Positions 50,084-63,437 of a stretch of 64,000 nt of DNA are shown piece by piece. The stretch is taken from contig JAGKSW010000022.1 of the NCBI GenBank assembly GCA_018993265.1, positions 1-64,000 on the forward strand, in the 5' to 3' direction. This stretch comes from Nostoc sp. TH1S01. GTDB taxonomy: Bacteria; Cyanobacteriota; Cyanobacteriia; Cyanobacteriales; Nostocaceae. Position 1 is the stretch's first letter. Every line of letters starts with the position of its first letter. The notes beneath the pieces are model-generated. The model was given only the letters and a program-made list of their open reading frames with translations. It searched no databases and had not been told where the DNA came from. The translations under genes and the position numbers were made by a program.

Positions 50084-51004
50084 TTACAGTTTAGATTTAT
50101 GAGCGAAATTCAGCAGCCGCATTTGCATTAACAGATAATAAAATGCTGTAAACATTGCTGCGGAAAAAATTTGTCCGCCCCAACCATCATGCCAAAAATC
50201 AAATGATTCTCCATCCCAATATGCAACAGAAATTGCCAGCAATGCAATACGAGCAGTGTTGAAAGTAAAAGCAATAATACATCCCAACAAACCTATGATT
50301 AATATCTGGAAGACTTTGAGTCTGTAAGCCATACCTATTAACAGACTAGTCATCAACATCAACACCATCAAATCAAATCCGTTACAACCCCATCCTATAT
50401 TTACGCTACCTGTAGGCAAGTTCACCAATGTTTTATCTACACTGCTTGGATAACCCATAGCACGAAGTGCTAAATTAACACTCCAAGCTTGAATTTGATC
50501 CATTGTTCTTTCAGGAGTCAAGACTCGCCATATATATGCTGGTAAAAAATTAATTCCAGGATAAATACTAAGAATAAACAAGAAATTTGGGCGTAGATAG
50601 GATTTAAAGAACTTGATTCCCCAACTACTAATCACAATGCCTATTAAAATTACTAACCAAACTAATGCTTGTGACCAACCTTTGTTTAGACTGAAAGGGA
50701 AAAACCCAACTCCAAACAAAATCAAACTATGACCTAACCTTTTTTGGATAGTTCCAGCATTTAATTTAGCAATTTGACTTTTCTTTTGCCATAAGTCTTG
50801 TAATGCTAAATAAACAGCAGTAACGGTCAATAATGGAAATGTGCTACCACCAATCAAAAACTGTACCAGTGTTTTTAACCAAAAAAATAAGTAATAATAA
50901 AAACCTACAATCAAGCCACACCAAATAATTCGATTATGGTGCTTGGCGAAATAAGTTGATAATGTCTTCTTAATTTTATTAAGATACTTTTTATTTATAT
51001 ACAA
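50084..51004 (-). CDS. Exosortase-family transpeptidase (cyanobacterial type)
   Basis: The 306-residue protein has about seven to eight membrane helices and the exosortase active site: Cys207 in GWGCNGF, Arg252 in FNTARIAL and His272 in FWHDGWGG. Exosortases recognise C-terminal PEP-like tripartite tails, cut them and attach or release the protein at the envelope. The next minus-strand gene upstream (51184-51612) encodes one secreted protein with such a tail, so enzyme and likely substrate form a pair. The start ATG at 51004 is preceded by a weak ribosome site. No polysaccharide genes are beside it. Confidence 0.85.
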   Translation of the reverse strand: MYINKKYLNKIKKTLSTYFAKHHNRIIWCGLIVGFYYYLFFWLKTLVQFLIGGSTFPLLTVTAVYLALQDLWQKKSQIAKLNAGTIQKRLGHSLILFGVGFFPFSLNKGWSQALVWLVILIGIVISSWGIKFFKSYLRPNFLFILSIYPGINFLPAYIWRVLTPERTMDQIQAWSVNLALRAMGYPSSVDKTLVNLPTGSVNIGWGCNGFDLMVLMLMTSLLIGMAYRLKVFQILIIGLLGCIIAFTFNTARIALLAISVAYWDGESFDFWHDGWGGQIFSAAMFTAFYYLLMQMRLLNFAHKSKL

Positions 51005-52272: not shown

Positions 52273-52611
52273 CTAACTTCCAAACCCAGTGAATTGACGT
52301 ATATATGGTTCGTGAAACGCCAAAATAATATCTTGTTTAGGTACGCCCATTTCTATCAATCGATTAGCAATTCCTTCTTCAGTACCATCATGCTGAATCC
52401 AAATTTTCCCATCTTTAATATCAAGATGTAAAATGCAGCCAAAATCACGTTTATTTCCTCGCCAACCAACATAAAGTAATTGGTAGTGGTCTTGCTGCTC
52501 GTCAAAAATTGTCTGTACTTCATACTCTTCGGCATTGCGTTTAATTGAGGCTCGTTGTTGCCGTTCTGAAAGAAGATGTCGAATATATTGCCGATATTGT
52601 TCTATAGCCAT
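52273..52611 (-). CDS. xisI: XisI family protein
   Basis: The 112-residue protein has the XisI fold markers: YRQYIRHLLSERQQ (N-terminal helix), HYQLLYVGWRGNKRDFGCILH and DGTEEGIANRLIEMGVPKQDIILAFHEPYIR. XisI was named for control of fdxN-element excision in Anabaena, but most copies are paired with XisH far from any such element, and their role is uncertain. The start overlaps the xisH stop by 10 bases, so translation is coupled. A decayed xisI fragment lies about 100 bases beyond its stop. Confidence 0.93.
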   Translation of the reverse strand: MAIEQYRQYIRHLLSERQQRASIKRNAEEYEVQTIFDEQQDHYQLLYVGWRGNKRDFGCILHLDIKDGKIWIQHDGTEEGIANRLIEMGVPKQDIILAFHEPYIRQFTGFGS

Positions 52612-53012
52612 TGACGAATCACCTCTTCTTGTACATCGTAAATCATCAATCGCAATTGATATTTGGTAACTGCCGAGGCAATAAATTTTCTTTGGAAGAA
52701 ACTTTCATAAATCGGGACGCGCACCGCTAAATAAAGTTGGCGTTCTGGTTCAATTTTATCTAACGCATCTCGATAATTTAAAAATTGTCCCAAGGAAGTA
52801 TGGAACTCTGAAACATTCGATGGACTAATAAAACTTTTAATTTCCACCGCTATTTTTCTGCCTTCTTGTTCTGCGGCTAACAGTTCCTCTGCGGCTAAAT
52901 CAATTTCAAAATCGACATCATCCACATTAATTTCATAAGGATCAGCCGTAATCTTCCAGCCATCTTTTTCTAAAGCGTTTCTAACAACATGATGAAATCT
53001 ATCCTTTGCCAT
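52602..53012 (-). CDS. xisH: XisH family protein, nuclease-like fold
   Basis: The 136-residue XisH protein has DRFHHVVRNALEKDGW at the start, the Asp in DFEIDLAAE and the Glu-x-Lys in IAVEIKSF, i.e. a PD-(D/E)XK core, with the family segment LGQFLNYRDAL and the end YDVQEEVIRQW. The nuclease residues are intact, but no activity has been settled for the family. With xisI it forms a two-gene unit resembling a toxin-antitoxin or excision module. No excisable element boundary is visible around it. Confidence 0.93.
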   Translation of the reverse strand: MAKDRFHHVVRNALEKDGWKITADPYEINVDDVDFEIDLAAEELLAAEQEGRKIAVEIKSFISPSNVSEFHTSLGQFLNYRDALDKIEPERQLYLAVRVPIYESFFQRKFIASAVTKYQLRLMIYDVQEEVIRQWL

Positions 53013-55939: not shown

Positions 55940-56377
55940 GTGCGAATGACTCAGATGAGTGATTTAAAAATTACAATCGATCATCAACCCGATACAAAAG
56001 ATATTCGTACTGTCATCAGCCATCTGGTGGAATATAACAACAGTCAAACACAGCCAGATATACACGAACCTTTAGCTATTTGGGTGCGAGATGCTGACAG
56101 TACTATTGTGGCTGGATTAGTTGGTAAAACAAATTGGGAATGGTTGTATATTTCGCATCTTTGGGTTTCCGAAACACTGCGAGGTCAAGGATATGGCAGC
56201 AAAATGATGCTAGAGGCTGAAAAATTAGCGAAACAACGCGGTTGTGGCAACGTATACCTAGATACCTTTAGTTTTCAAGCCTTGGGTTTCTACCAACGTC
56301 TCGGCTATCAAATTTTTGGTGTTCTAGAAGATTTTCCCCCTGGTCATCAGCGATATTTTTTATCAAAAAAGCTATAG
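55940..56377 (+). CDS. GNAT family N-acetyltransferase
   Basis: The 145-residue protein has the GNAT core: LWVSETLRGQGYGSKMMLEAEKLA (motif A, with the acetyl-CoA pyrophosphate loop RGQGYG) and FYQRLGYQIFGVLEDFP (motif B). The substrate is not predictable from the sequence. GTG at 55940, ATG at 55946 and ATG at 55955 (MSDLKITI) are all possible starts, and none has a clear ribosome site. It diverges from agrE and is convergent with the nuclease-helicase gene, 59 bases between stops. Confidence 0.85.
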   Translation: MRMTQMSDLKITIDHQPDTKDIRTVISHLVEYNNSQTQPDIHEPLAIWVRDADSTIVAGLVGKTNWEWLYISHLWVSETLRGQGYGSKMMLEAEKLAKQRGCGNVYLDTFSFQALGFYQRLGYQIFGVLEDFPPGHQRYFLSKKL

Positions 56378-56436
56378 CAATTTGCTTTAATTGATGAACA
56401 TAATGATGTAGTGATTAGTTAAGAATGTGATTGCTA

Positions 56437-59400
56437 TTAATGTATTGAGATTGTAACTTTTGACTGTTGAAAATCAACTTCTTGTATAATTAAATCTTGC
56501 ATCTGTCGATTGAATTGCTTGAGTTTATCAAGCTTTCCTCCAGACAACTGCCAATATTTTTGATAATCATAGGTTGTCATCCATAAATCATCGTGAAACT
56601 CGACAATAATTAGTTCATTTAACTGAATTGATATATCAATACTCGCAGTATCGTCAACACTAATAAGCATACAATCAAAAACTTCTTGGTTAGATTGTAG
56701 TGTTTGCTGTTTACGTTGGATATTCTCAAAACATTCTTCTATTTTCCGACTACTTCCCGTATGCACTTGAAGTATTTCAACCCATTGTCTGAAATCTAGA
56801 TTGAATAGCCAATCCTTAAACGTTGAATATTTTGTTTCAGAATAAATCGTTTGATAAGCTTTGCTTAGATTAATAGCAATTTGACGATCATACACGCCTA
56901 AAGTCATTGCATAGACTGCTGCGGGAGTTGACACACCATGAGTTACAAATGAGGTTAGGTTATTGAAAATTTTAGGTATATTTTGACGATTTAGATAAAA
57001 GGCAAGATGTCTGATCAGTGAGTTAAATCCCCAAGAAAAAGCATGAATCACTTGTTCTAACTTTTTGACAACAAGTTCTGTTTTACCATCAAAATATAAA
57101 TCTGCTAATTCCTTATAGTCTTTACCCTGAAGCCAGCCTATCAGTGGCTCAATGCTATCAAGCTTTAAACTCTCTGTCAGTTCTGGAAGTCTTTTGAATA
57201 AATAATAAGACTCCTGCCAAAAATTGATAGGTAATTCACTTATATCTGTATAGGTATCAATTTCACCAACCAGTTTTTGTGCATAAGCTGTTATGGCTTG
57301 ATTACTGCCTACACTTAATCCTGTGAGGTTGAATAACTTACGTTGTTGGATATCTTTTACCTCATTTTTGAGCAAAATTGCTCTTGTCTTCAGTGCAGTC
57401 TTAAATACAACTAATACGTCTTCTATATTTAGAGACTGCACATGACATAACAGCTTCTTAAAGATGAATTCGATTTTTTCCTCATCAACTTCATCAAGAC
57501 AAGACTCTAGAATCCATGCCAGAAGTTGCGAATCTAAATAGGATAAAATTTCTTTCTGCTTCTTGCTTGCTAAAGTTTTCTTTTGCTGTGTCCAATTTTC
57601 ATAGTCATTACCAGCCTCTCTGAACTGGCTTGTTGAAGCCAACGCCCACAGTGAGAGAAAATCTTCAGTGCTTTCAAGCGAGAATAACCTAGACTGTGCC
57701 AAATGCCTTATACCCGAAACAATAAAACTTTCTGATACTTCTGTTGGTGCTTCCTGGCAAACTATCTCTAAATCTTGGCTGTCACAAAAGATAATGTGTC
57801 CTTCTGTCTCAGAGCCTGCTCGACCTGCACGCCCGACAGCATTAGCATACTGAGCCATGCTAATCTTATTGTGCATTGACAAAGAATGGACAATTACATT
57901 CTTGATTGGAAGATTAACGCCTTGTGACAACGTGGTTGTAGAAACAATAAGTGGAATGATGTTATCGCGTACTGCATTCTCAATACGCCGCCTAACAACA
58001 TTAGGCAGTTCAGCATGGTGATAGCAAAATCCGAGAGCAACAGCTTTTACAAGTAAATGCTCAGAGCCAAGCAGTTCAGTGCATTCATCTACAATTTGTT
58101 GTATTTCTGGTGAAACTGCTAAAGGCTGCTTTTGCAAAAGCGAGATTAAACACTCAGCAATAGTTTCAACAATTGGTTTGGTAGTTGTAAAAACTAAGGT
58201 AGAGCCAGTTTGTGTATAATACATAGCCAACCGCGCTGCAACAACAACACTTTGTTGATGAAATTTGCCATTCGACTTCTTCATACTGCATTCTGATTTT
58301 AAGAAAGGCAATGGCACGAAGAAGTTATCAGATGGATAATCTCCCGTTTGAGGCAGATAACAAACTGTTGCTCTTCTAGTTCGACTCCATTCAACGAAGC
58401 CCAACCTTTGTTTTGTCGGTCTCCAATCTATTTTGACAACATTTTTTTCGTTTCCAGAAAGCCATTGGGCAAAATCACCGGCATTGTTAATAACTGCTGA
58501 AATTCCAATTACTCTAGCGTGATTTTTTTCTGCAATAGCCAGTAATCTTGAGTAGATTAATTCCTGCCTAAGACTTCTAGGATTTGCGGCAGCTGAATCA
58601 TGGGCTTCATCAATGATAAGAAGTGCGAGCTTACTTTTGAACTCTTCGCTGTTGCGGGTGAGCAAATCTAATTTTTCAGGAGTTAAAACAAACACCTGAT
58701 TATCTTTTAAAATATCCTCTTCCAATTGACTAAAATCATACCCACCATAGAGGATAGAAACATTTATATTAACACGAGATAAGCTTATGGATAGGCTGCT
58801 TTCTACCTCATACGCCAAAGCTCTTGTCGGAACAACGTAAGCGCAGACTTTATCCGGCTTATCCTTGAGGGAATGATAAATTGCCAGTTCAACAGTTTTA
58901 GTCTTGCCTGCACTTGTTGGCATGGCAATAACAAGAGATTTATCCTCTAATAAACCCTCTTGCAAAGCTTTCTGCTGTGATTTCCACATTGACATCATAG
59001 GAAACTTACCAAGTGTGGACAGAAAGCGCAGGTAAAGCTTCCATTCATCATTTATATTCTCGACATAAGGACTAACAAGTTTTTGTGTTGAATGCTCAAT
59101 TAAACTTTGTAAATATTTCCCAATAGCGTTGAGTAAAACGTAGGAGCGATAATCACTAACTGTTGCATATTGTCTGCCTGCGGCTATCGTCAGCTTGAGG
59201 ATTTCTGCCTGAAGTGCTTCATTGCCTGTACGCAGGTATTGAGTAAAATTTGCAAAGGCTTTTGCTGTTAGCCAGTCACCAACATCGGCGATTTTAGTAG
59301 ACACCAAATCCATCCATTCTTCTTCTTCCTGGGGATAATCATTTGGTTCTAATTCCTTCTGATAGAATTTGAAAAAGAATTGTGCCAAGGCATCTTGTAA

Positions 59401-60669
59401 TTGGCTAATTTCACCAGTCAGCAAATGGGTCAGTAAAATTCTTGGGGTATTTGAAAGCAAGACATCTTTAATATCTTGCTGATGCAGAATTTTTGATACT
59501 AAGACTTTGGCATTGGCGTTATACCCTGCGATACTATACAATAATGCACTTGTAACAATATTTTCTACAGCAATAGAAGCTTGGCCATCTTCAAGCCTTA
59601 GAATCGCCAATCTCTCATGAATAACGGCAGATTCCTTGAGTACTTGTTCTGCTTCTTTGGAAGCGTCTGTCAACAAGTTATAGCCTGTTAGTGCTAGGAA
59701 ATTAGCTGCTTTTTCTAGTTTCCGAGGATCATATCTATAAAAAATAAAGCTTCTTTGCTCATTTTTAAGTTCGACAGTTAAAGCTTCTGATGCTAATTGA
59801 TTGTGTTCGCTTTTGAAATCAGAGTTACTCAGTAACTTCTTAACTTCTATTAATTCATCTATATCTACAGAAGGAAGCGACAGTTTTGAGGGTTCTTTAT
59901 TCTGACTGGATACTAATTCTTTCTGATACGCTATCCAGTTGGGAATGAGAAACGCGTTGACAGTTAAAGGAATCTTAATACCTTCGATAACATCGTCAAA
60001 ATATTGATCTTTCCACTTTTCTTCCTCAGTCACAACAACTGCAAGGTATTCTGTGTAGTATGAGTACGTGTAAGGATCATTAAATCTGTTAACAAGTTTT
60101 GCTTCATTATATCGTCCTGCCGTTCTCAGAACATTGATAATGAAATCCAAAAGCGTAACTGAGCCTTCCTGAACTTTAAATAAACCTGTACTGGCATCTT
60201 TAACAGCTTGCTTTGGATTACTACCGTAATTTTTAAATTCTCCAACTAGTAATGCTTTCGGTATTCCATTGGCATTGAACTTCAGCCCAAGTACATCATC
60301 CCCATGCATTGGCATTTTTCTGTTGGGAGAAAAGCGGAGCTTAAAAACAGGAATTTGGTAGCCTGTGCAACCTAATATATAAGAGGAAGCAATTGCTTCA
60401 CCAATAGTACCATTCCAAACTTTCACCTGACCTTGAGTCATTTGGTGAAGGTCTTGAATAACAGACTGTAACCCCTCTTCTTTCAAATTCTCCAGTTCTT
60501 CAATGATGCCCTGTGGATGCCGACAGAAATAGGGAATTATCAGTTTTAAGTGGCGCAGAAACGTTTCAACGTCCTTGGGGGTTACTTTTTGCCTTTCAAA
60601 ATCTTTGCCAACAGGCTTGGCACAAGGAACTAAAACTAGGTTATCAGTGAAGTCTTGTAGAAAGGACAT
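56437..60669 (-). CDS. Fused HamA-like nuclease and Ski2-like helicase (Hachiman/AbpAB-type)
   Basis: This 1410-residue protein joins two halves. Residues 85-240 resemble DUF1837/HamA nucleases: GEAIASS (Glu91), HGDD (Asp124/125), VGEFKNYG (Glu144-x-Lys146) and the following QAVKDAS helix form a PD-(D/E)XK set. Residues 570-960 form an SF2 helicase: AMPTSAGKT (583-590), DEAH (687-690), STTTLSQGVNLP, and motif VI QYANAVGRAGR (940-950), all Ski2/HamB-like. The middle and the last 450 residues are helical. HamA and HamB (and AbpA/AbpB) are normally separate genes for antiphage defence, so this looks like their fusion. No accessory defence gene is beside it. The start ATG at 60669 is the only good one. 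Confidence 0.8.
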   Translation of the reverse strand: MSFLQDFTDNLVLVPCAKPVGKDFERQKVTPKDVETFLRHLKLIIPYFCRHPQGIIEELENLKEEGLQSVIQDLHQMTQGQVKVWNGTIGEAIASSYILGCTGYQIPVFKLRFSPNRKMPMHGDDVLGLKFNANGIPKALLVGEFKNYGSNPKQAVKDASTGLFKVQEGSVTLLDFIINVLRTAGRYNEAKLVNRFNDPYTYSYYTEYLAVVVTEEEKWKDQYFDDVIEGIKIPLTVNAFLIPNWIAYQKELVSSQNKEPSKLSLPSVDIDELIEVKKLLSNSDFKSEHNQLASEALTVELKNEQRSFIFYRYDPRKLEKAANFLALTGYNLLTDASKEAEQVLKESAVIHERLAILRLEDGQASIAVENIVTSALLYSIAGYNANAKVLVSKILHQQDIKDVLLSNTPRILLTHLLTGEISQLQDALAQFFFKFYQKELEPNDYPQEEEEWMDLVSTKIADVGDWLTAKAFANFTQYLRTGNEALQAEILKLTIAAGRQYATVSDYRSYVLLNAIGKYLQSLIEHSTQKLVSPYVENINDEWKLYLRFLSTLGKFPMMSMWKSQQKALQEGLLEDKSLVIAMPTSAGKTKTVELAIYHSLKDKPDKVCAYVVPTRALAYEVESSLSISLSRVNINVSILYGGYDFSQLEEDILKDNQVFVLTPEKLDLLTRNSEEFKSKLALLIIDEAHDSAAANPRSLRQELIYSRLLAIAEKNHARVIGISAVINNAGDFAQWLSGNEKNVVKIDWRPTKQRLGFVEWSRTRRATVCYLPQTGDYPSDNFFVPLPFLKSECSMKKSNGKFHQQSVVVAARLAMYYTQTGSTLVFTTTKPIVETIAECLISLLQKQPLAVSPEIQQIVDECTELLGSEHLLVKAVALGFCYHHAELPNVVRRRIENAVRDNIIPLIVSTTTLSQGVNLPIKNVIVHSLSMHNKISMAQYANAVGRAGRAGSETEGHIIFCDSQDLEIVCQEAPTEVSESFIVSGIRHLAQSRLFSLESTEDFLSLWALASTSQFREAGNDYENWTQQKKTLASKKQKEILSYLDSQLLAWILESCLDEVDEEKIEFIFKKLLCHVQSLNIEDVLVVFKTALKTRAILLKNEVKDIQQRKLFNLTGLSVGSNQAITAYAQKLVGEIDTYTDISELPINFWQESYYLFKRLPELTESLKLDSIEPLIGWLQGKDYKELADLYFDGKTELVVKKLEQVIHAFSWGFNSLIRHLAFYLNRQNIPKIFNNLTSFVTHGVSTPAAVYAMTLGVYDRQIAINLSKAYQTIYSETKYSTFKDWLFNLDFRQWVEILQVHTGSSRKIEECFENIQRKQQTLQSNQEVFDCMLISVDDTASIDISIQLNELIIVEFHDDLWMTTYDYQKYWQLSGGKLDKLKQFNRQMQDLIIQEVDFQQSKVTISIH

Positions 60670-60782
60670 TTTGGAGTAATAAATAACTTTGACTAGTGCA
60701 GCTATTTATGTGGTAGCATCAATTACCGCTAAATGTCATCTAAATAAGTCACTTCGAGTTGAAGCGATTTTATGTGCTATTT

Positions 60783-63437
60783 TTACAACTTCCTCCCGCC
60801 GCCAACTGTAGATAAACCCAAGGGGCCGCGAGTGACACCTAACTGGTTTTGTAATTGCAACTCTCGCCAAAGTTGGGAACCGGAAATTTCACCTTGGAGT
60901 AGCTGACGGTAGCGGTGTATAGTTTTTGCCACTTGTTCTGGTGTTTCATTGACAAATTCAATACGAAAATGACGTAAACCCAGTTCTACCAGACGCTGTA
61001 CGTATTCGGCTCCGGTTTGGGCTGTACCATTAAATACGGTGTTACGACAACCAGCATCAGCTTGGAGGACGTGTTCACTACCAACGCGATCACGTAATTT
61101 TACTTCATGTTTCTCACAAGGTCTGCCACAGTTAGTATAATCAGTACCTTCCGAAAGAAAGGCACAGAAAACACAATGTTCCATGTGAAACATTGGTATA
61201 CGCTGGTGAATTGTCACCTCAAACCATTGCGGTGGACAACTGCTCAGTAAGTCTTCTAGTTGATTAATATTTAAATCGTAGGATGCAGTTAGCCTTTCTA
61301 AACCAAAGTGCTGTTTATAGTAATCTGCGGTTAAAGGGTTGGCAACATTGAGAGAAAAATCACCTATACATCTATCTGCACCAAAGAATTGTAACTGATC
61401 GTAATTCCGCACTAGATAACCGTCAGCATTTGCAGCCCGTACTTGCTGTAAAATCCAGTTTTCCCCAGGTTTGGTAATGCGGGGAGGTGCAACCCATATC
61501 TGAGTGCTGAGTGCTGAGTGCTGAGTGCTGAGTGCTGAGGAGCCACTGCGTTGGGCGGGTTCCCCGACTTGAAGCAAGTGGCGTTGCTGAGTGCTATGTT
61601 GATGTACTAGTTGTACGGCTTGGCGGTAGGTGCGGGGGTCTTCAAATTCACAGTAGAAAGCTTCCACACCAGTATTCAAGGCGGCTTGGAGTTGCTTGAG
61701 GTTGCGGACTAGAACTATGAGTGAAGGAGATACGGGAGATGGGGGAGAGACAGCCGGAAGTAAGTCTTGTAAGGAAACATCCGAACGTAATTTCCAGCGT
61801 TTGGGTTGACTGCGTAACTCTTCTAACTGGGCGACAATTTCTCGACGCATCCGGTTTAACTCACTGACGGGAACCATGACAGCGCCCTGGAGATGATTAG
61901 TTAAAGTTCCCAAACAAAAGGGAGTGTTACCCAGACGACCGAACTGTTCTCGCAAACGCTCTGTATCTAAAGGTTTAGTGTGTGCTTGGGCTAGTGCGAT
62001 CGCAGATTCTACTTGTACGATGTTACCAAGTTCATCGCGGGCGATCGCCATCAACAATTGCCCAACTTCGCCATAAATTTCCAACGATATCGGACGCTGA
62101 AATTGCGGGTTGTCACCAGCAAAACTCTGACGCAGTTGTTTATCCAGTTCTGGGTCACTGGTTTTCCACACCTTATCACCCACATGCACCCGCCGGAAGT
62201 TAAGGCTATCTTTGCCAAAAGTGAGTATAACCTCCTGACCTTTGGGTGTGACTGTGTAAACCCGACCGCCTTCTTCCTTCGCCTCTGGATGACCGCAGTC
62301 AAACACAATTCCGTCTCCCGGTTTGACTGGTGCTTCTAACTTAATCGTTACTTGTTCGTTCCGAACACGGGTAACTTCCCCCAAATAAACCCCGCGCTTT
62401 TTCCCAAACCGCGCATGAACTAATTCTTGATTATTAATTCCATTAAACCAGCCAGTATATAGTCCACGGGAAAACGCCATTTCCAAGTTGTATTGTTCTT
62501 GACCTCTCCCCCAACCCCTCTCCGCTTCGGAGAGGGGAGTCTTACTTCCCCCTTCCCTACGAGGGAAGGGGGTTAGGGGGTTAGGTCTTTCCAATTCCGC
62601 CATGACCTTATCTAATGCTTCTCGATAAACGCGGGTGACATTCGCTACATATTCCGGTGCTTTCAACCGCCCTTCAATCTTCAGACTAGTTACCCCAGCC
62701 TTGACCAAATCTGGTAATACATCTAACCCTGCCAAATCTTGGGGACTGAGTAAATATTTGCGTTCTTGTAAATCAACAATTTCACCATCAACGATTAAAT
62801 CATAAGGCATCCGACAAGCTTGGGCGCATTCACCCCGGTTTGCCGAACGTCCGCCCAAAGCTTCACTCGTCAAACACTGACCAGAATAGGCGACACACAA
62901 AGCGCCGTGAACAAAAACTTCTAATGGTAAAGTAGTTGCTTGCTGAATTTTCTGAATTTCTTTAATAGAACATTCCCGCGCCAGCACTACCAATTGACAG
63001 CCGAGAGATTTAGCAAAATCTACCCCAGCCGCGCTGGTGATAGTCATCTGAGTGGAAGCATGGATAGGAAAATCTGGTGAGAGGTGACGAATTAGACGAC
63101 AAATACCAACATCCTGGACAATTACTGCATTTACACCAGCAGCAATAATTGTACGGAGATATTGCTGTGCCTCGGCTAATTCTTGCGGGAAGATGAGGGT
63201 ATTTACGGTAACATAGCCCTTCACACCTCGTAGGTGTAAAAACTTCATCAATTGCGGTAAATCAGCCTCAGTAAAATTTTGCGCCCGCATTCTGGCGTTA
63301 AATCTATCCAAACCAAAATAAATCGCATCAGCCCCATTTTCAACAGCAGCTTTAGCACATTCCCAGTTACCTGCTGGCGCAAGTAGTTCAGGACGTTGAA
63401 AAGAAGTTTGTGAGTTTTGTGTGCGATCGCTTTTCAT
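60783..63437 (-). CDS. U32 family peptidase-like protein (RlhA type, DUF3656) with repeat insertions
   Basis: This 884-residue protein has the U32 signature EVFVHGALCVAYSGQC (about 173-188) followed by NRGECAQACRMPY, and a DUF3656 region. A Cys-rich C-terminal motif (CVFCAFLSEGTDYTNCGRPCE) is like that of RlhA, the enzyme that hydroxylates 23S rRNA C2501 in E. coli. A tRNA-modifying TrhP role is the alternative. Two segments are repeat DNA read in frame: about residues 284-313 (PNPLTPFPRREGG...) and about 618-646 (SALSTQHSALSTQ). They enlarge the protein beyond the usual length and probably lie in surface loops. The start ATG at 63437 gives RTQNSQTSFQRPELLAPAG, typical of the family. Confidence 0.88.
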   Translation of the reverse strand: MKSDRTQNSQTSFQRPELLAPAGNWECAKAAVENGADAIYFGLDRFNARMRAQNFTEADLPQLMKFLHLRGVKGYVTVNTLIFPQELAEAQQYLRTIIAAGVNAVIVQDVGICRLIRHLSPDFPIHASTQMTITSAAGVDFAKSLGCQLVVLARECSIKEIQKIQQATTLPLEVFVHGALCVAYSGQCLTSEALGGRSANRGECAQACRMPYDLIVDGEIVDLQERKYLLSPQDLAGLDVLPDLVKAGVTSLKIEGRLKAPEYVANVTRVYREALDKVMAELERPNPLTPFPRREGGSKTPLSEAERGWGRGQEQYNLEMAFSRGLYTGWFNGINNQELVHARFGKKRGVYLGEVTRVRNEQVTIKLEAPVKPGDGIVFDCGHPEAKEEGGRVYTVTPKGQEVILTFGKDSLNFRRVHVGDKVWKTSDPELDKQLRQSFAGDNPQFQRPISLEIYGEVGQLLMAIARDELGNIVQVESAIALAQAHTKPLDTERLREQFGRLGNTPFCLGTLTNHLQGAVMVPVSELNRMRREIVAQLEELRSQPKRWKLRSDVSLQDLLPAVSPPSPVSPSLIVLVRNLKQLQAALNTGVEAFYCEFEDPRTYRQAVQLVHQHSTQQRHLLQVGEPAQRSGSSALSTQHSALSTQIWVAPPRITKPGENWILQQVRAANADGYLVRNYDQLQFFGADRCIGDFSLNVANPLTADYYKQHFGLERLTASYDLNINQLEDLLSSCPPQWFEVTIHQRIPMFHMEHCVFCAFLSEGTDYTNCGRPCEKHEVKLRDRVGSEHVLQADAGCRNTVFNGTAQTGAEYVQRLVELGLRHFRIEFVNETPEQVAKTIHRYRQLLQGEISGSQLWRELQLQNQLGVTRGPLGLSTVGGGRKL
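61501..61582. repeat. Heptamer array plus palindromic module inside the U32 gene
   Basis: TGAGTGC-type heptamers fill 61501-61540 (five to six units). A 41-base module GCCACTGCG...CAAGTGGC follows (61542-61582), nearly identical to 40859-40899 in repeat copy B. Both lie inside the U32 coding sequence and are translated, reading SALSTQHSALSTQ for the heptamers. The frame is kept. Confidence 0.85.
62501..62587. repeat. Palindromic repeat translated inside the U32 gene
   Basis: This 87-base element (29 codons) is bounded by GACCT and AGGTC. It contains CCCCTCTCCG/CGGAGAGGGG and CCCCCTTCCCT/AGGGAAGGGGG hairpins. It is related to the intergenic copy at 40621-40710 and encodes a Pro/Arg/Gly-rich insert. 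Its length is an exact multiple of three, so the reading frame survives. Confidence 0.85.

What the first reader, a model, noticed from the sequence alone, without database searches (positions are those of the whole stretch)
56437..60669. HamA-like nuclease and Ski2-like helicase in one 1410-residue polypeptide
Seen in the sequence: the N-terminal third holds GEAIASS, HGDD and VGEFK in the order and spacing of a PD-(D/E)XK nuclease of the DUF1837/HamA type. The centre holds the helicase motifs AMPTSAGKT, DEAH and QYANAVGRAGR. Known: Hachiman (HamA-HamB) and AbpA-AbpB are two-gene antiphage systems built from these families. Inference: this is a single-chain version in which nuclease control by the helicase is built into one protein. 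The long helical middle (about 240-570) and C-terminal 450 residues may replace the normal subunit interface.
Basis: partly seen in the sequence, partly recalled or inferred. Interest (0 to 1): 0.75.

Follow-up and report, generated by a model that had tools for sequence, protein, structure and literature searches.

The report
Single-chain Hachiman nuclease-helicase
A cyanobacterium carries the nuclease and the DNA-sensing helicase of the Hachiman antiphage system as one 1410-residue protein instead of two, and a second, separate fusion of the same two parts turns up in other cyanobacteria, giving a natural test of whether the nuclease must be let go to do its job.

Summary
Window 56437-60669 (-) is one intact 1410-aa frame. 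Its N-terminal ~255 residues are a HamA nuclease domain (Pfam PF08878, 40.5 bits, cut-off 25). E144 and K146 align with E138 and K140 of E. coli HamA, the pair mutated in the nuclease-dead structure. After a linker of at most ~20 residues comes a complete HamB (PADLOC HamB1 over 278-1376, E 2e-112).

The fusion is real: four further cyanobacterial sequences share it (49-83% identity; three intact, one broken inside HamB), and dN/dS over HamA is ~0.11 in two pairs. The gene sits alone in a site that is empty in 7 of 10 same-genus genomes (3 could not be judged). Three other cyanobacteria carry a second single-chain HamA-HamB (1567-1618 aa) in a distant lineage that also holds split forms. A single origin is rejected (AU p 2e-31).

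Best reading: a new variant of Hachiman whose nuclease stays tethered to its helicase, so the published release of HamA cannot happen by subunit dissociation. Defence activity and cis cleavage are inferred, not shown.

The parts
56437..60669 (-). single-chain hamA-hamB gene, 1410 aa
59908..60669 (-). HamA nuclease domain (residues 1 to about 254; the end is approximate)
   Evidence: Pfam PF08878 above cut-off; E. coli HamA by sequence and fold; last helix of the model 246-257
60397..60399 (-). E91 of the GE motif, invariant in the fused and split HamA rows aligned
60295..60297 (-). D125 of HGDD, invariant Asp
60232..60240 (-). E144-x-K146, aligned with E138/K140 of E. coli HamA
59851..59907 (-). 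linker region, residues about 255-273 (at most about 20 residues; boundaries approximate); no in-frame ATG/GTG/TTG in residues 236-330
   Evidence: alignment with split HamA and HamB, low pLDDT 259-284, start-codon scan
59050..59850 (-). N-terminal alpha-helical bundle of HamB (NAH, HamA-binding in E. coli), residues about 274-540
   Evidence: PADLOC HamB1 from residue 278; equivalence to the published NAH is by homology
57745..59049 (-). Ski2-like helicase core (RecA1/RecA2), residues about 541-975
58900..58926 (-). helicase motif I AMPTSAGKT (582-590)
58600..58611 (-). helicase motif II DEAH (687-690)
57820..57852 (-). helicase motif VI QYANAVGRAGR (940-950)
56440..57744 (-). HamB C-terminal region, residues 976-1410 (winged-helix-like, helical and OB-like parts by homology only)
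   Evidence: PADLOC HamB1 to profile position 1067/1104
56374..60782 (.). 4.4-kb segment absent from the same site in 7 of 10 same-genus genomes; this gene is the only one of at least 80 aa listed in it

Best explanation
This is a single-chain variant of the Hachiman antiphage system. The N-terminal HamA PD-(D/E)XK nuclease and the HamB Ski2-like DNA helicase are one polypeptide joined by at most about 20 residues (shown by sequence). Most likely HamA docks in cis on the helical bundle of its own HamB and is held inactive while HamB surveys DNA; a free single-stranded end entering the helicase drives ATP hydrolysis and shifts that bundle, freeing the nuclease site (inferred from the published two-subunit mechanism). 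Because the nuclease is covalently attached it cannot diffuse away, so it should cut the DNA that its own helicase has engaged, or neighbours within reach, and nuclease and helicase are always 1:1 (inferred). The gene behaves as a stand-alone one-gene unit (shown for the empty site and the changing surroundings; how it moves is unknown).
For: HamA and HamB families in one frame. HamA and HamB folds retrieved from two models. E91, D125, E144, K146 invariant between fused and split HamA rows, E144/K146 matching E138/K140 of the solved enzyme. Four further fused sequences at 49-83% identity, three intact, one on a complete plasmid. Purifying selection on HamA: dN/dS 0.114, 0.106 and 0.054 in three pairs; a fourth pair is saturated. 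The HamA-binding bundle is kept. No in-frame start codon near the window's junction that would make free HamB. Site empty in relatives; no other gene shared by all four contexts. [quoted passage not shown]
Against: No activity data of any kind. The 1200-residue model has pLDDT under 50 over residues 1-137, so docking of HamA on its own HamB could not be assessed. Protease cleavage after synthesis is not excluded. Reach in trans through a flexible linker or oligomers is not excluded. One of the five clade I sequences (L046/L102) is broken inside HamB. No obvious defence genes were seen by eye in the nearby frames of the window (not searched).
Confidence: 0.65

Rival explanations
1. The chain is made as a fusion but is cut by a cellular protease into HamA and HamB, so the system works exactly like canonical Hachiman with release of HamA.
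For: The linker is the least conserved segment, 16% identity between window and L048 against 41-59% in the other four segments, as expected of an exposed loop. Release of HamA is part of the published model.
Against: No protease domain among the Pfam hits of the chain and no other gene shared by the four contexts; the adjacent U32-type gene is present at the same site in relatives that lack the fusion. A poorly conserved linker is equally expected of a plain tether.
Confidence: 0.15
2. The HamA domain is mainly structural in the fusion, and the protein acts chiefly as a helicase that blocks phage replication or recombination.
For: In protease-HamA fusions and AbpAB the HamA site is dead and another domain is the effector (passages and section of PMC12799240 and PMC12278908).
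Against: The four HamA catalytic positions are kept in the clade I rows and in split kin, HamA is under purifying selection, and Pfam finds no other effector domain.
Confidence: 0.08
3. It is a host DNA-repair nuclease-helicase rather than a defence protein.
For: HamB resembles Hel308 and polymerase theta helicases.
Against: Patchy: 4 of 217 genomes of the family, none of the 10 other same-genus genomes; on a plasmid typed as conjugative in one host and in matching plasmid surroundings in another. The best HamB profile scores 374.7 bits against 170.2 for the best Hel308-type model.
Confidence: 0.08
4. The fusion is a sequencing, assembly or stop-loss accident without function.
For: One of five sequences is broken (L046/L102, inside HamB).
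Against: Same junction in five assemblies including a complete plasmid; purifying selection; a separate second lineage.
Confidence: 0.02

Closest known systems
Hachiman HamA-HamB (two genes; E. coli ECOR31, PDB 8vx9)
   Same: HamA nuclease with intact GE...D...ExK site; HamB with helical N-terminal bundle, Ski2-like core and C-terminal part; order A then B.
   Different: One polypeptide with a short linker instead of two subunits; release by dissociation is impossible unless the chain is cut.
AbpAB
   Same: HamA-related domain plus Ski2-like helicase.
   Different: As published, AbpA carries an N-terminal Cap4 nuclease and a catalytically inactive HamA; here no Cap4 hit, an intact HamA site, and a single chain.
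Protease-HamA Hachiman with HamM (HamMAB)
   Same: A fusion involving HamA.
   Different: There a trypsin-like protease is fused to HamA and the HamA motif is absent in virtually all cases (passage); here HamA is fused to HamB and keeps its motif.
Hna
   Same: Single-chain SF2 helicase plus PD-(D/E)XK nuclease in defence.
   Different: Hna has the nuclease at the C-terminus (PMC13381803, passages); here it is N-terminal and of the HamA family.
PADLOC candidate PDC-M23B
   Same: HamB-like helicase model, E 5.1e-75, best stretch 282-966.
   Different: Scores below the best HamB1 models; I did not look into the make-up of that candidate system.

Membership tests
Hachiman | HamA (DUF1837) nuclease with D...ExK site | tested here: met
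Hachiman | HamB Ski2-like helicase with HamB-type N-terminal helical bundle | tested here: met
   PADLOC HamB1 278-1376; 8vx9_B top fold match, E 4e-30
Hachiman | two adjacent genes giving two subunits | tested here: not met
   one 1410-aa frame; so it is filed as a single-chain variant, not as canonical Hachiman
Hachiman | HamA held by HamB and activated by ssDNA ends and ATP | not testable with these tools
   needs biochemistry; docking not assessable in the model
Hachiman | protection against dsDNA phages | not testable with these tools
   needs phage assays
AbpAB | N-terminal Cap4 (PF14130) nuclease with inactive HamA | tested here: not met
   no PF14130 among hits up to E 1; HamA site intact
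HamMAB (protease-HamA) | trypsin-like protease fused to HamA, MBL nuclease gene upstream | tested here: not met
   no protease domain among Pfam hits; HamA motif intact. Neighbouring frames were judged by eye, not scanned for MBL domains
Hna | C-terminal PD-(D/E)XK nuclease after the helicase | tested here: not met
   nuclease is N-terminal; C-terminal part matches HamB to profile position 1067 of 1104

The most novel reading that the evidence does not exclude
Hachiman has repeatedly become a one-protein, non-releasing immune enzyme in cyanobacteria: at least two independent HamA-HamB fusions in which the nuclease acts only in cis on DNA engaged by its own helicase, so that defence may be local DNA destruction rather than the cell-wide DNA loss and abortive infection of two-subunit Hachiman.
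Probability: 0.35. Interest if true: 0.75.

Novelty: new variant of a known kind. Interest (0 to 1): 0.6.

Why it matters
[quoted passage not shown] A natural covalent fusion with an intact nuclease makes that question directly testable: if it defends, release by dissociation is not required. Two separate fusion lineages, one of them with fused and split forms as sisters (95/88 support in the HamB tree), offer matched natural pairs. Existing annotation names the fused gene HamA only or helicase only, so such systems may be scored as incomplete.

Tried and rejected
Internal translation start giving free HamB: none in frame in residues 236-330 of the window or the broken L102 copy; L047 has GTG 253 and L048 and L083 ATG 258, none with a Shine-Dalgarno-like match. 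Domain edges from my own HamA and HamB profiles depend partly on where I cut the training rows (residues 255 and 281 of the window), so the linker is given only as at most about 20 residues, resting also on the PADLOC start at 278, the alignment with split proteins and the model. Docking from the 1200-residue model: HamA part too poor, nothing claimed; an alignment that mixed HamA-only and HamB-only rows misplaced the HamA rows and was not used for prediction. Promoter and terminator scans gave about what shuffled sequence gives (14 against a mean of 12.6; 3 against 3.2). Viral contigs: no fused relative; one HamA relative, split; 18 HamB-like loci, with HamA and HamB in separate frames in the 10 where HamA was found. 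Phages: four records, partial helicase matches only, best E 2e-36 over 30% of the query. A single origin of all fused forms: rejected, with the program's warning that long branches are present. Other phyla were sampled only through plasmids, phages and viral contigs, so fused forms there may be missed; the PF08878 survey also misses clade II. The supplementary figures of PMC12799240, which cover other HamA fusions, and Cui et al. 2025 (PMC11914072) could not be read, so a HamA-HamB fusion may be mentioned there. Families not listed by pdb_via are not excluded.

Rows dropped: L129_split had a wrongly cut helicase core (916 aa) and was left out of the second tree; it is in the first. Loci that are one record (L048, L053 and L054; L110, L120 and L131; L046 and L102; L063 and L065) went into the tree once each. 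The broken copy counts as fused in the tree.
Full report
What is there. The frame at 56437-60669 on the minus strand is intact, 1410 aa. Pfam gives HamA at residues 54-205 (40.5 bits, cut-off 25), DEAD at 564-728 and Helicase_C at 865-952. PADLOC gives HamB1 over residues 278-1376 (profile positions 11-1067 of 1104, E 2.1e-112) and HamA1 over 57-197 (E 8.1e-18). Among solved structures the best hit is E. coli HamB (E 4.3e-53), and HamA of the same complex is also found (residues 23-186, E 5.0e-8). With a profile built from seven fused and split HamA domains, the only PDB hits up to E 1 are the two HamA sequences, E 1.6e-44 and 1.6e-41; in the second, the letters at the positions of E144 and K146 are the two alanines of the published mutant E138A,K140A. 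E91, D125, E144 and K146 are invariant in that alignment of 7 and in another of 13 HamA rows.

Domain layout. The alignment with split proteins puts the end of HamA near residue 250-260 and the start of HamB near 270-280; PADLOC's HamB1 begins at 278 here and at 271 in L047; the model has its last HamA helix at 246-257 and the next at 270-281. The linker is therefore at most about 20 residues. My own profiles gave HamA to 253-254 and HamB from 273 in fused kin, but those edges partly reflect where I cut the training rows. Split HamA proteins in the first comparison are 252-267 aa and split HamB 1111-1203 aa, so the fused length is about the sum of the two; other split HamB frames are mostly 1035-1183 aa, with shorter ones in small-genome cyanobacteria.

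Structure. AlphaFold2 on residues 1-284 with 13 rows gave mean pLDDT 62.7, pTM 0.64. Foldseek's only matches at E 0.001 or better are 8vxy_A and 8vx9_A; VIA-align gives 8vx9_A Z 12.7 over 217 residues at rmsd 6.5, 8vxy_A Z 10.4, the E. coli 'Hachiman' chain 8zue_A Z 7.5, then MspJI and FokI at 5.4. A model of residues 1-1200 (mean pLDDT 59.7) matches 8vx9_B first, E 4e-30. Its residues 1-137 are under pLDDT 50, so I claim nothing about docking, and I did not measure distances between catalytic residues.

How real is the fusion. Clade I holds five sequences: the window; Nostoc sp. LPT MAG (L046, 83% in the best segment), broken into 537 and 872 aa inside HamB and not at the junction; Pseudanabaena sp. 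ULC187 MAG (L047, 1414 aa, 68%); Nostoc sp. UHCC 0926 plasmid pn3, typed as conjugative (1409 aa, 49%), annotated only as HamA; and G785 (1409 aa, 96% to pn3). In the family 4 of 217 genomes, the window's included, match at E 1e-50 or better. dN/dS over HamA is 0.114 (window-LPT), 0.106 (window-Pseudanabaena, synonymous changes near saturation) and 0.054 (pn3-G785, few changes); window-pn3 is saturated. Among four distinct contexts the fused gene is the only frame of 90 aa or more shared by all; pn3 and G785 share their plasmid surroundings, and a VapC-like frame (name by eye) is shared at 38% between two contexts.

Insertion. In 7 of the 10 other same-genus genomes the flanking GNAT-like gene and the U32-type gene (names by eye) face each other across 42-320 bp; the window has 4.4 kb there, with this gene alone. 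In the other three (G002, G003, G007) the two flanks lie on different contigs, so the site could not be judged. Among 60 near genomes no full-length relative was found; all 60 had partial, helicase-type matches.

A second fusion. A clade I profile search of 388 genomes of the order found, besides three clade I genomes, six genomes with matches at E 1e-30 or better. Three have one long frame: Calothrix sp. PCC 6303 plasmid (G139, 1567 aa), G518 (1618 aa) and G467 (1611 aa). Two have separate frames (G451, 411 and 1112 aa; G663, 397 and 1108 aa). The sixth (G176, 569-aa frame) was not examined. The N-terminal parts align with HamA over 122 columns (hhalign probability 95.5, E 1.5e-8) and all five keep GE, GDD and EAK motifs, although Pfam does not see HamA in the Calothrix protein. 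The two split forms are genuinely split: three stops in a row in G663, and a spacer of about 130 nt with HamB in another frame in G451. Four alphaproteobacterial relatives that I opened are split too.

Origins. On a tree of helicase cores from 43 systems (8 fused, counting the broken copy; 35 split), fused rows fall in two well-separated places, and starred branches force at least four changes of state. With the one badly cut row left out (42 rows) the result holds and a single fused clade is rejected, log-likelihood 175 lower, AU p 1.9e-31. Three of the four changes lie within clade II, where fused and split forms are interleaved; gains cannot be told from losses there. The program warns of long branches in this tree.

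How common. In a draw of 386 genomes of the phylum PF08878 hits 24 genomes with 25 matches: 2 in single chains (window, G213) and 23 in frames of 277-362 aa, one of them below the cut-off. A clade II profile hits 6 of a 386-genome draw of the phylum: one single chain (Calothrix), three with separate HamA and HamB frames, two with HamB-only matches not examined. Of 72,556 plasmid records 54 match residues 1-306 at E 0.01 and only pn3 covers at least 80% of that stretch, which spans the junction. Separate hamA and hamB genes were checked by coordinates in plasmid loci; in the 15 listed they overlap by 1-17 nt or lie 1 nt apart, always in different frames, so joining them needs a frame change as well as loss of a stop.

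Mechanism. In two-subunit Hachiman, DNA entry and ATP hydrolysis move the HamA-binding bundle, and the complex comes apart with ATP (PMC12278908, section read); whether cleavage is cis or trans is stated as open. The fused protein keeps the parts of that mechanism that can be read from sequence but cannot come apart. I infer tethered, mostly cis cleavage, confidence 0.65 for the whole statement; the identification itself is near certain.

Literature. Searches listed no paper that, in title, abstract start or the passages I opened, describes a HamA-HamB fusion; most listed papers were not opened. PMC12799240 (passages) says other HamA fusions each arose once, with details in supplements I could not read. 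Of PMC12278908 I read five sections, the outline and passages. PMC10732053, PMC13381803, PMC12839542, PMC12948488, PMC13316683 and PMC11514479 were seen as passages. Cui et al. 2025 is not held.

Verdict. A new variant of a known kind, with a second separate case. Interest 0.6: the parts are known, but the arrangement bears directly on an open mechanistic question.

Noticed in passing
L110 3169-7869 (Calothrix sp. PCC 6303 plasmid), L121 198-5051, L122 2746-7578: A second, distant family of single-chain HamA-HamB proteins of 1567-1618 aa; Pfam misses the HamA of the one tested (L110); close relatives L123 and L124 are split.
   Followed up: yes
window 61502-61595: A short dispersed repeat with many copies in this genome and its relatives lies in frame inside the U32-type gene; alignments of several relatives break there, so it looks like a repeat element inserted into a protein-coding gene.
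   Followed up: partly
window 52273-53012: Two small adjacent genes on the minus strand that look like the XisI/XisH pair (names recalled from sequence, not searched).
   Followed up: no
window 50084-51004: A membrane protein that looks like an exosortase (recalled, not searched).
   Followed up: no
L125 4113-7127 and L126 2116-4815: HamB-like helicases of 1005 and 900 aa in a same-family and a same-genus genome with no HamA match in the fetched stretch; L126 is near a contig end. They may belong to other helicase systems.
   Followed up: no
L087 7593-10198 and L092 6331-8879: HamB matches spread over two frames in small-genome cyanobacteria, possibly decayed Hachiman loci.
   Followed up: no
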